A stretch of 64,000 nt of DNA from Zarea fungicola (Eukaryota > Ascomycota > Sordariomycetes > Hypocreales > Cordycipitaceae): positions 248,001-312,000 of the forward strand of contig FWCC01000094.1 in NCBI GenBank assembly GCA_900169235.1, in the 5' to 3' direction. Position numbers and translations under genes: made by a program. Positions 23,201-26,050 of this stretch are shown here, in pieces. The first letter of the stretch is position 1, and every line of letters starts with the position of its first letter. The notes beneath the pieces were generated by a model, which was not told where the DNA came from, ran no database searches, and worked only from the letters and a program-made list of their open reading frames with translations.

Positions 23201-24519
23201 ACGGCTGGACGAAAAGGTTGAGGACATTTCAACTGATTTAGAAGCAGCACTGCAGTCCAAGAAGCGTCTGCAACATGAGCTCGAGGACTATCGTAGCCAG
23301 CGTGCCATGGATATTGAGGACAAGGAATCCAGCATGGAGCAGACACGGAAAAAGTACCAGGCAGAGTTTACCACGTTGACAAAGGAGCTCGACCTCGCTC
23401 GTGAGGAGAAGCTTTACAAGCAAACGGAGATTACTCGACTACGTGAGGAGTTGGATGACCTCCGATCCAAGTGGGACGATGAGGTGCTCAACAGCTCGAC
23501 ATGGTCCAAAGAAAAGGCACGCATGGAAGCAACGCTAGCGGACGTCTCGGCGTCGCGCGAGGAGGCTGCTAATGCGCACAGCGAAGCCCAAGGCAAGGTT
23601 GTATCGCTGCTATCACAGGTCCGCGCTTTGCGAACCAGTGTCGACGAAATTACTGCGGAACGCGATCGTCTAATGCGTGAGAAGCGTAGCGTGGAGAGCC
23701 GTCTTGAGGAGGCCAAGGCTGGACTAGACGGACTGGCCCGAGGTGACAGCGCATCGCTGCGTGATGCAGCCAACATGGACAAGACGGTGCTTGAGCTCAA
23801 GTCAAGCTTGGCTAAACACGAGGACATTGCCACGGCAGCAGTGGAAAAGATGCGCCGATCAGAGGCCCTCGTGGCTGAGATGCAGAAGGAGGTTGTGACG
23901 GAGCGTGAGAACAATGCTGCCGTACTCGCCCAAAAGGCCGCCGTGGAGCGCTCACTCAACGAGGCACAATTGCGGCTGGTGGATCTTGAGACCAAGGGAT
24001 TCTCGAGTGCCAGCCAGGATATCAAGTTTTTGCATAAGCGAATTCAAGAGGTGTGTAACCCAAAGCCCGTGCAAGTTTTGATGTATCTAACAAATTTAGC
24101 TTGAATCACAACTCGAAAAACACGAGACGGAAAGGTCGCAATCGCAACGATCAACACGGAACGTGGATCGAACCGTCAAGGATTTGCAGAGCCAGATTGA
24201 GCGCAAGGACAGACAAAACATGCAGCTCTCGGAGGACGTCAGCCGCATGCGCGAAAAGGTCGACAAGCTTCTGAAGACGATTGACGAGCTGCAGGCGTCC
24301 GAGTCGTCTACCCAGTTGTCGACACGGCGGGTAGAGCGCGACTTGAGGGAAGAAAAGGAGAGGACATTGCGCCTGGAGCGCGAGGTCGACAGCCTCAAGA
24401 CATTCAAGGCTGGTGGTGGGAGCATCCGCAACCGCATTTCTGCGCTGGGGGTGATTGAGGATGAAGGAAGCGATTCGAGCTTGAGCCGCGCGCCAAGCAT
24501 GACCAAGGGCTTCATCTAA
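17292..24519 (+). CDS. MYO2: class II myosin heavy chain
   Basis: Three exons (17292-17723, 17778-24050, 24100-24519) give 2,374 residues. After an N-terminal Ser/Pro-rich extension and an SH3-like region the motor shows the P-loop GESGAGKT at about 255-262, switch I 'NSSRFGKF' at about 315, switch II 'DIAGFEIF' at about 543 and the actin-binding 'PHFVRCILPN'. An IQ-like segment ('FQSVARGFVQRR') follows at about 860, and the remainder is a very long coiled-coil tail broken by a Pro-rich linker around residue 1660. This is the filamentous-fungal conventional myosin that drives contractile actin ring formation at septa. Intron 17724-17777 is 54 bp, has GTATGT, ACTAAC and CAG signals and no in-frame stop; keeping it would add 18 residues just before 'QRELDPESVDK'. 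Ser/Thr-Pro sites occur at the N-terminus. Identification is secure. Confidence 0.96.
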
Positions 24520-25326
24520 TTGTATTTTATGACGAGGACTGTCTGGTGAGGGTAGATTAGGACGGGCGTTGTGTATTTATGGGTTATGAATTTATTCTAC
24601 ATGTTAATACGATCAATTCTTATGACTCCAGACCTGCCACCACCCCAAGACGTTGAACATGGCATTCACAAAGTGCCAATATGTGTTTTCCAATGTGAGG
24701 TTCTTGCCCATTGGATCACCGACCTCTACGATTTGCGCGCGGACTGTTAGTAAATCGATTCTGTTGTCTATGGCTCTGGCCGTTGGCGGACTTGAGTTTA
24801 CTCTGAACATGTTGAAGCACCTGTCGCCATTGAAGGCCGGCCACACGACGGACGCAACATGCGACTGAAGATGGTAATGAATTCGAAAATTTCAAAGAGA
24901 GTCCGGGGTTGTTTAGGGCCTTGGTGTGTTGAAGGTTGGAGGTTAACAAAAAAGAGTAAGGATAAGCAGGCATTGCACGATTGCGTTATACCTCTCTCTC
25001 TTTACTTGCCTCAAATCACTTCGATACCAAGCACATACATCATAGTACACTCCAAAAAGAAGAAGGGAGAGAGACACTCCAAACAACATAAAGATGGCCA
25101 ACTAGATAATCCCAAGACAAAAAAACCTGAACAGACTCTAAGCGCTGCTTAAAATCAAAGCTTCAGGGTAGCTGTTCAGATGCGTCCCTCTTGGAATCTA
25201 CTAGTTACCGCTGCCTTTCCAATCTTGACGGGAGACCCCCATAGACCCACACAAATGGAGTCAGATTAGCAATAAAAAGAGGGAAAAAAAAGACAACTTC
25301 AAAATAAAATATGTCCAAAAAAGGAA
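24520..25326. other. intergenic, no gene seen
   Basis: Between the myosin 3' end and tRNA-Pro. No protein-like frame or RNA fold recognised. An A6 run at 25317-25322 (T6 on the minus strand) is the likely terminator of the tRNA gene. Confidence 0.6.
25317..25322 (-). terminator. RNA polymerase III terminator of tRNA-Pro
   Basis: Six consecutive T on the minus strand, four bases after the discriminator base. Confidence 0.75.
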
Positions 25327-25473
25327 GGGTCTGGCCGGGGATTGAACCCGGGACCTCTCGCATATTGACTCAGGGTATTCCCTAAGCGAGAATCATACCG
25401 CTCTGAGGAGATGTTAGAATTACTGTAAATGTTGATGTGGATCCATTGTGAGATACTTACAGACCACCAAACC
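25327..25473 (-). tRNA. tRNA-Pro(AGG) with two interruptions
   Basis: Minus strand. The acceptor arms GGTTTGG (25473-25467) and CCAGACC (25334-25328) pair over seven positions with one G-T; the discriminator is C. The T arm CCGGG-TTCAATC-CCCGG and anticodon arm CTCGC-TTAGGGT-GCGAG are intact, anticodon AGG. A 17-nt intron (25379-25363) lies between positions 37 and 38 and its CCCT can pair with AGGG, as for a normal tRNA intron. A second insertion of 58 nt (25460-25403) follows nucleotide 13: the 5' part ends GGTCT, the insertion starts GTAAGT, has CTAAC and ends CAG, and the tRNA resumes AGCGGTATGATT. Removing both gives a 72-nt tRNA with an unbroken D arm. The insertion splits box A; box B (GGTTCAATCCC) is intact. 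Transcription and maturation are unproven. Confidence 0.85.
25403..25460 (-). other. spliceosomal-intron-like insertion in the tRNA D arm
   Basis: 58 nt with donor GTAAGT, branch-like TTCTAACAT and acceptor CTCAG, the same signals used by the protein-gene introns of this window. Precise removal rebuilds GGTCT-AGCGGT of the D arm. Short complementary words TCTG and CAGA straddle the two junctions. Confidence 0.75.
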
Positions 25474-26050
25474 ATATTCCATTTGTTGAAAACGGCACAC
25501 TTATTTATTACTATGTTGGCTTGCCTGATGCAAACACTATTATTTCGCGTATAGAACCATGCCTTAGGTATGACGTAGCTTTAATAAAGGTAAAAGCCTA
25601 TCTTAAAGCTAAATTTATATATTAGAATAAATAGACTATGTATTTTAACGCAAGGCTATGGAAGGCCAAACCATGTTCCGATAGTTGAAACGCTTGCTAC
25701 TAGGGTGGCTTAAGCAAATGTTAAGACAACTATTTCGCGTTTAGAATCGGGTTTTAACTGTTACGTAGGTTAAATATGTGCATATGGTCTATCGTAAGAG
25801 CTGTAAATATAAAATAGAATGAATAGACTCTACATCATAATGTAAGGCTGTGGAAGGCTATTGCTTGAAACGGCGGCCATGTTTGCTACAATTGTGGCTT
25901 ATGCATGACCAAAGACTATTATTTCAATTTACAGTCGTGTTTCAGCAGTTGTGTAGTTTTGATGAGGGCAAAAGCCCATTTCAAGAGCCATAAATATATA
26001 ACAGAGCACACAGGCTGCATGTTGTGACGCAAGGCCGCGGAAGGCTGTGC
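25467..26050. repeat. array of three diverged ~190-bp tandem units
   Basis: Three head-to-tail units begin at about 25467, 25661 and 25853 and end near 26045. Shared landmarks in order: CCAAACCATRTTCC with GTTGAAA, a GGCTT(A/G) word, ACTATT(A)TTTC with CGCGT, a C/T-rich core, TAAATATA, GAATAGACT, and GCAAGGC-TGGAAGGC at the end. Spacing is 187-199 bp. The first unit starts inside the acceptor stem of tRNA-Pro. The units are AT-rich and full of transitions. They carry no open frame. Confidence 0.75.

What the first reader, a model, noticed from the sequence alone, without database searches (positions are those of the whole stretch)
25403..25460. Spliceosomal-type intron inside the D arm (box A) of a tRNA-Pro gene
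Seen directly: on the minus strand the tRNA sequence GGTTTGGTGGTCT is followed by 58 nt that begin GTAAGT, contain TTCTAAC and end CTCAG, after which the tRNA resumes AGCGGTATGATT. Exact removal restores a complete tRNA-Pro(AGG) whose acceptor, D, anticodon and T arms all fit. The tRNA also keeps its ordinary 17-nt anticodon intron and a T6 terminator. Known tRNA introns in fungi are cut by the tRNA endonuclease at position 37/38; I know of ectopic tRNA introns in some red algae and archaea (bulge-helix-bulge type) but not of GT-AG, branch-site-bearing ones in a fungus. The insertion splits box A, so RNA polymerase III promotion should be impaired; the gene is either dead, transcribed by another polymerase and spliced, or uses a new rule.
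Basis: partly seen in the sequence, partly recalled or inferred. Interest (0 to 1): 0.9.

Follow-up and report, generated by a model that had tools for sequence, protein, structure and literature searches.

The report
mRNA-type introns inside fungal tRNA genes
A fungus carries tRNA genes interrupted by introns that look like those of ordinary messenger RNAs, which suggests that the spliceosome, and not only the dedicated tRNA-splicing enzymes, is needed to make some of its tRNAs.

Summary
A tRNA-Pro(AGG) gene (window 25327-25473, minus) is split between nt 13 and 14 by 58 nt with GTAAGT, CTAAC and CAG. An uninterrupted copy with the same exons fixes the ends. A second locus on another contig is interrupted alike: exons 71/71 identical, D-arm insert 47/58, distal upstream DNA 108/160. 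That points to selection on a spliced product rather than a dead gene.

Two further finds in this genome support spliceosomal removal. The U6 gene has a 59-nt GTAAGT...CTAAC...CAG intron. The only tRNA-Leu(TAA) gene found has a 58-nt GTAAGC...CTAAC...CAG intron inside its anticodon plus a canonical 17-nt intron; ARAGORN reads Leu(taa) only after the GT-AG part is left out. UUA codons occur in the window's myosin gene, so that tRNA should be needed.

Best reading: working spliceosomal introns in nuclear tRNA genes, probably in Pol III transcripts. Not shown: any RNA evidence, or the polymerase. Two uninterrupted Pro(AGG) genes exist, so the window gene itself may be dispensable. The listings of my paper searches showed no report of such tRNA introns.

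The parts
25461..25473 (-). tRNA-Pro(AGG) exon 1, nt 1-13
   Evidence: identical in C305 and in uninterrupted L004
25403..25460 (-). 58-nt GT-AG intron in the D arm, between tRNA nt 13 and 14
25455..25460 (-). 5' splice site GTAAGT
   Evidence: identical at C305
25413..25417 (-). branch-site-like CTAAC; 11 nt follow its branch A to the intron end
   Evidence: identical at C305
25403..25405 (-). 3' splice site CAG
   Evidence: identical at C305
25380..25402 (-). tRNA exon 2 (rest of D arm, 5' anticodon arm, anticodon AGG)
25363..25379 (-). canonical 17-nt anticodon-loop intron
   Evidence: ARAGORN on the sequence without the D-arm insert
25327..25362 (-). tRNA exon 3 with discriminator base; box-B-like GGTTCAATCCC at 25348-25338
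25317..25322 (-). T6 run, Pol III terminator-like; T5 at C305
25464..25474 (-). TGGTTTGGTGG, possible stand-in box A starting at -1
   Evidence: score 8.5 in both interrupted loci; intact sites used 10.7-14.9
25474..25665 (-). upstream repeat unit 3 (next to the tRNA); related unit at C305
25666..25857 (-). upstream repeat unit 2; ends in GGTTTGG like the tRNA start
25858..26044 (-). upstream repeat unit 1
24051..24099 (+). yardstick: 49-nt mRNA intron of the neighbouring myosin gene, GTGTGT...TCTAAC...TAG
   Evidence: leaving it out joins the reading frame to the stop codon

Best explanation
The 58-nt insert is a genuine U2-type spliceosomal intron in a working tRNA-Pro(AGG) gene. Most likely steps: RNA polymerase III makes the precursor, using box B and a weak or shifted box A, and stops at the T-run. 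The spliceosome cuts out the D-arm intron. Only then can the D arm fold, after which the ordinary tRNA endonuclease and ligase remove the 17-nt anticodon intron. The same two-system splicing would apply to the tRNA-Leu(UAA) gene of this genome, whose GT-AG intron sits inside the anticodon, and the same pairing of Pol III with the spliceosome to its U6 gene. Shown by sequence: the insert and its signals, the second diverged locus with identical exons, the U6 and Leu(TAA) introns. Inferred: transcription, polymerase, splicing, order of steps, use of the product.
For: Intron ends fixed by an uninterrupted gene with identical exons and signals with joint chance about 8e-8. Two interrupted loci: exons 71/71 against distal upstream 108/160, Fisher p 2.7e-10, and against D intron 47/58, p 8.6e-5. 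14 of 14 signal positions kept against 33 of 44 other intron positions, p 0.05. T-runs after both genes. U6 of this genome has a 59-nt GT-AG intron with the same signals; S. pombe U6 is a Pol III transcript spliced by the spliceosome (PMC8917221, passages). Leu(TAA): 58-nt GT-AG intron, no second copy found. Spliceosomes of S. cerevisiae remove a lichen rDNA spliceosomal intron from Pol I transcripts (PMC8527467, passages). Neighbouring mRNA intron has like signals and spacing.
Against: No RNA data at all. Two uninterrupted Pro(AGG) genes exist. Box A is broken and the stand-in scores below all 25 intact sites used; part of it is plain tRNA-Pro sequence, since uninterrupted L003 has a like site (9.1) while L004 has not (2.8). 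Signal conservation inside the intron is only borderline (p 0.05), and the D intron is not clearly better kept than distal upstream DNA (p 0.063). Only two loci, no other species. Gene conversion between them could also keep exons alike. For Leu(TAA) 17 GT..AG excisions of 40-80 nt are possible and ARAGORN calls a tRNA for 12 of them, among these Ser(tga) 4 times; only one gives Leu(taa), and it is the only one of the 12 with GTRNGY, CTRAC and YAG together.
Confidence: 0.72

Rival explanations
1. The intron is spliceosomal, but the tRNA is carved out of an RNA polymerase II transcript that starts in or above the upstream repeats; box B and the T-run are leftovers or unused.
For: Box A is split. 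Repeat units with TATA-like stretches lie upstream of both interrupted genes and no match to them was found elsewhere in the genome.
Against: T-runs directly follow both genes. Flanking genes differ between the loci, so no shared host mRNA is seen. U6, a Pol III gene in other eukaryotes, has a like intron here, and the Leu(TAA) gene keeps an intact box A.
Confidence: 0.13
2. The two interrupted Pro genes are dead: a processed or random insertion that happens to look like an intron, never spliced.
For: Two uninterrupted Pro(AGG) genes could supply the tRNA. Box A is broken.
Against: 71/71 exon bases kept while distal upstream DNA has drifted to 108/160; intron signals of joint chance about 8e-8 all kept in both loci. 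The Leu(TAA) case cannot be explained so if it is single-copy.
Confidence: 0.11
3. The D-arm insert is cut out by the tRNA endonuclease through a bulge-helix-bulge-like fold, as in red algae and archaea.
For: Ectopic tRNA introns in algae are handled so (PMC3978253, passages).
Against: Spliceosomal signals sit exactly at the ends; minimum-energy folds of the two precursors differ around the insert. My pairing scan neither supports nor excludes it: best pairing was reached by 249 and 82 of 300 shuffled inserts, and the known anticodon intron did no better (190 of 300).
Confidence: 0.03
4. Assembly or sequencing artefact.
For: None found; the assembly is a draft of 456 contigs.
Against: Two loci on different contigs with different flanks and 11 differences inside the insert.
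Confidence: 0.01

Closest known systems
Spliceosomal (mRNA-type) introns in U6 snRNA genes (S. pombe; PMC8917221 passages, which cites Tani and Ohshima 1989 and 1991, not read)
   Same: Short GT-AG intron in a small RNA gene made by Pol III; the U6 of this genome has one too
   Different: Host is a tRNA, which must fold and pass the tRNA endonuclease as well; at Pro the intron also splits the internal promoter
Spliceosomal introns in nuclear rDNA of lichen fungi (PMC8527467 passages) and an mRNA-type intron in 18S rDNA of deuteromycetes (Rogers 1993, seen only as a reference)
   Same: Spliceosomal intron of like length (57 bp in the example used there) in a non-mRNA gene of ascomycetes
   Different: Pol I host RNA, not tRNA; rDNA of this genome could not be examined (RF01960 search did not complete)
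Ectopic and permuted tRNA genes of red algae, green algae, nucleomorphs (PMC3978253 passages)
   Same: tRNA broken outside nt 37/38, also in the D loop; transcription with a displaced or broken box A
   Different: Junctions there are of bulge-helix-bulge type, though the paper says many introns of the Guillardia nucleomorph do not form a defined one; here GT-AG with a branch site
Canonical nuclear tRNA introns at 37/38
   Same: Present as a second intron in the same Pro and Leu genes

Membership tests
U2-type spliceosomal intron | GT...AG ends with an extended 5' splice site | tested here: met
   GTAAGT and CAG in both loci, ends fixed by the uninterrupted gene
U2-type spliceosomal intron | Branch site CTRAC a short way before the 3' end | tested here: met
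   CTAAC, 11 nt after its A in both loci; 13 in U6, 12 in Leu(TAA), 9 in the myosin intron
U2-type spliceosomal intron | Removed as a lariat by the spliceosome | not testable with these tools
   no RNA data
Functional nuclear tRNA gene | Complete tRNA after intron removal, right anticodon, standard arms | tested here: met
   ARAGORN Pro(agg) after removal; nothing found before
Functional nuclear tRNA gene | Intact internal box A and box B (Pol III) | tested here: not met
   box A split, native score -2.6 against 14.8; box-B sequence intact; stand-in at -1 scores 8.5
Functional nuclear tRNA gene | Exons under purifying selection | tested here: met
   71/71 against 108/160 distal upstream, p 2.7e-10; gene conversion not excluded
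Bulge-helix-bulge tRNA intron | Bulge-helix-bulge at the exon-intron junctions | tested here: inconclusive
   scan does not separate the known anticodon intron from shuffles
Introner-like mobile intron | Related copies at other places of the genome | tested here: not met
   a query holding the intron matched across it only at the two Pro loci; short diverged copies could be missed

The most novel reading that the evidence does not exclude
In this fungal lineage the spliceosome is a second, obligatory tRNA-splicing machine. The only tRNA-Leu(UAA) gene found is split within its anticodon by a GT-AG intron and also carries a tRNA-endonuclease intron, so reading of UUA codons depends on the spliceosome acting on a small-RNA transcript; and in the Pro genes the intron takes the Pol III box A apart in the DNA while the spliced RNA regains the D arm.
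Probability: 0.62. Interest if true: 0.93.

Novelty: new variant of a known kind. Interest (0 to 1): 0.87.

Why it matters
tRNA splicing and mRNA splicing are treated as separate systems; a 2026 review says so outright (PMC13149111, passages). If a tRNA needed for a sense codon passes through the spliceosome, translation in that organism is tied directly to spliceosome activity, two splicing machines act in order on one small RNA, and a Pol III promoter box can be split and the gene still be kept. tRNA finders also miss or misname such genes: ARAGORN returned nothing for the Pro genes and Thr(tgt) for the Leu gene, so more may lie hidden in fungal genomes.

Tried and rejected
Genome-wide tRNA census: the RF00005 search scored only 63 of 1250 candidates and does not list even the uninterrupted Pro genes, so no full count of interrupted tRNAs is possible from it. 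Two pattern scans for GT-AG introns at nt 13/14: TGGY form 5 hits against 9 in the reversed control, 2 of the 5 being the two Pro genes; TAGY form 3 hits against 13, 0 of 3 a tRNA by ARAGORN after leaving out the putative intron. Introns at other D-arm sites were not scanned.

Leu(TAA) single copy: the first Leu/Ser pattern was too narrow and hit only one place, on the contig I take for mitochondrial; a wider one gave 11 places against 5 in the control, 8 of which I read by eye as nuclear Leu or Ser genes, one of them Leu(TAA). A pattern for an uninterrupted Leu(TAA) gave 58 hits against 166 in the control; the 57 stretches that cover them hold 0 tRNAs by ARAGORN, while 3 of 3 Leu control stretches do. 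It covers canonical introns up to about 28 nt and a GGTTCRA box B only; the Leu(CAA) genes here have introns of 35 and 47 nt and CGTTCGA, so a second Leu(TAA) gene of that make would rest on the homology search alone.

Upstream repeat as a structured RNA: no support (one match, E 1.7, other strand; z -1.19, one unit folded; 2 of 13 pairs with changes on both sides, 4 units). Bulge-helix-bulge scan: uninformative. rRNA search for organism identity and rDNA introns: not completed. Relatives: none held for this genome; viral contigs pattern scan 0 hits and protein scan 6 pattern matches, 0 confirmed.

Paper searches listed no title or abstract start that reports spliceosomal introns in nuclear tRNA genes. 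I saw listings, and passages only of PMC3978253, PMC11782384, PMC8917221, PMC5569088, PMC8527467, PMC6461891, PMC4494063, PMC13149111. Papers of subscription journals are mostly not in the library.

Full report
What is there. The minus strand at 25473-25327 holds a tRNA-Pro(AGG) gene with 58 nt between nt 13 and nt 14. ARAGORN and Rfam, run on the window, do not report it. With the 58 nt left out ARAGORN reports Pro(agg) with a 17-nt intron at the usual place. The insert starts GTAAGT, has CTAAC at positions 44-48 and ends CAG. An uninterrupted gene of the same genome (L004) has identical exons, so the ends are set by comparison, not by looking for signals. The joint chance of the signals in a random 58-mer of that composition is about 8e-8.

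Copies in the genome. A search of the 43-Mb genome gave seven places: the window gene, a second interrupted gene on C305, two uninterrupted Pro(AGG) genes on C135 with 16-nt anticodon introns, one 49-bp fragment on C135 and two Pro(TGG) genes. So 2 of 4 full-length Pro(AGG) genes found are interrupted.

Signs of function. The two interrupted loci are old duplicates: distal upstream DNA agrees at 108 of 160 aligned positions, the D-arm intron at 47 of 58, the anticodon intron at 16 of 17 and the exons at 71 of 71. Exons against distal upstream, Fisher p 2.7e-10; exons against D intron, p 8.6e-5; D intron against distal upstream, p 0.063. Inside the intron the 14 signal positions are all kept and 11 of the other 44 differ (p 0.05, borderline). 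The 25 bp just upstream agree at 21 of 25, and T-runs follow both genes. The pattern fits a gene whose spliced product is under selection. Gene conversion could also keep exons alike; the two loci share an anticodon-intron type that the C135 genes lack, which speaks against recent conversion from those, but conversion between the two is not excluded.

Promoter. The insert splits box A. A matrix from 25 tRNA heads, picked by hand out of 44 unique ones to drop near-duplicates, scores the native site 14.8 in the uninterrupted genes and -2.6 here. TGGTTTGGTGG at -1 scores 8.5 in both interrupted loci, below all 25 intact sites used (10.7-14.9); scores of 8 or more occur at 0.00075 of the window's plus-strand positions. 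Part of it is the tRNA-Pro acceptor sequence: uninterrupted L003 has a like site (9.1), L004 has not (2.8). Three tandem units of 187-192 bp lie upstream at C299 and one at C305, and a search with them matched only these two loci. They do not look like a structured RNA. Whether they matter is unknown.

Two further GT-AG introns in small RNA genes of this genome. (1) U6, one match among the 47 of 2762 candidates scored. The Rfam alignment is good up to GGAT and then drifts; the sequence shows 59 nt GTAAGT...CACTAAC...CAG, after which GACACGCA resumes, as in U6 elsewhere (that comparison is recalled). The intron holds a box-B-like GTTCGAAACC. The SRP RNA gene matched end to end in 301 nt and so seems uninterrupted. 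(2) tRNA-Leu(TAA) on C98. ARAGORN reads the uncut gene as Thr(tgt) with a 75-nt intron, odd for a tRNA with a long variable arm. Leaving out 58 nt (C98:27513-27570, minus), GTAAGC...AACTAAC...GCGCAG, gives Leu(taa) with a canonical 17-nt intron whose ACTTGA can pair with TTAAGT of the anticodon loop. The GT-AG intron lies between nt 34 and 35, inside the anticodon. As a control I left out each of the 17 possible GT..AG stretches of 40-80 nt: ARAGORN calls a tRNA for 12, namely Ser(tga) 4, Glu(ttc) 4, and one each of SeC(tca), Leu(taa), Lys(ttt), Thr(tgt). Leu(taa) is the only one with GTRNGY, CTRAC and YAG together; Lys(ttt) has the first two but ends AAG. The base after the acceptor stem is A, where the Ser genes here have G; that A73 goes with Leu and G73 with Ser is recalled. 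A homology search found no second copy. A pattern for uninterrupted Leu(TAA) gave 58 hits (166 in the control), and the 57 stretches that cover them hold no tRNA, while 3 of 3 Leu controls were found. The window's myosin gene uses 10 TTA codons. If the gene is single, its intron has to be removed.

Mechanism. Most likely a Pol III precursor is spliced first by the spliceosome and then by the tRNA endonuclease. The order is inferred: the D arm cannot form before the first step. Pol III origin is inferred from box B, the T-runs and the U6 precedent (PMC8917221, passages). A Pol II precursor is the main rival.

Organism. In the best 120 of 1249 listed relatives of the neighbouring UCH protein the top-scoring named one is Trichoderma arundinaceum (72% identity), and the highest identities are Zarea fungicola (86% over 80% of the query) and Cordyceps militaris (75%): a hypocrealean fungus, perhaps near Cordycipitaceae; species not known.

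Novelty. Spliceosomal introns in a Pol III RNA (U6) and in rRNA are known; ectopic tRNA introns are known, mostly of the bulge-helix-bulge type (PMC3978253, passages). The listings of ten paper searches showed no spliceosomal intron in a nuclear tRNA gene. I therefore call it a new variant of a known kind: a spliceosomal intron in a new host RNA.

Noticed in passing
L064 (G000:C98:27449-27604, minus); intron C98:27513-27570: tRNA-Leu(TAA) gene with a 58-nt GT-AG intron inside the anticodon plus a canonical 17-nt intron; ARAGORN names the uncut gene Thr(tgt). The only Leu(TAA) gene found.
   Followed up: partly
L078:1568-1626 (G000:C377:4508-4566): U6 snRNA gene with a 59-nt GTAAGT...CTAAC...CAG intron that holds a box-B-like stretch.
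   Followed up: partly
window 25474-26044, minus strand: Three tandem units of 187-192 bp upstream of the tRNA, one related unit at C305, no match elsewhere in the genome; unit 2 ends in GGTTTGG like the tRNA start. Role unknown.
   Followed up: partly
L005 (G000:C135:60855-60903): 49-bp Pro(AGG) fragment that begins exactly at nt 14, the same point as the D-arm intron site, about 600 bp from the uninterrupted gene L003 and inverted; its anticodon intron is of the C135 type.
   Followed up: partly
window 25433-25452, minus strand (D-intron positions 9-28): CTCACAATGG.TCCACATCA is 19/20 identical between the two loci, while 7 of 15 positions differ at 29-43; reason unknown.
   Followed up: no
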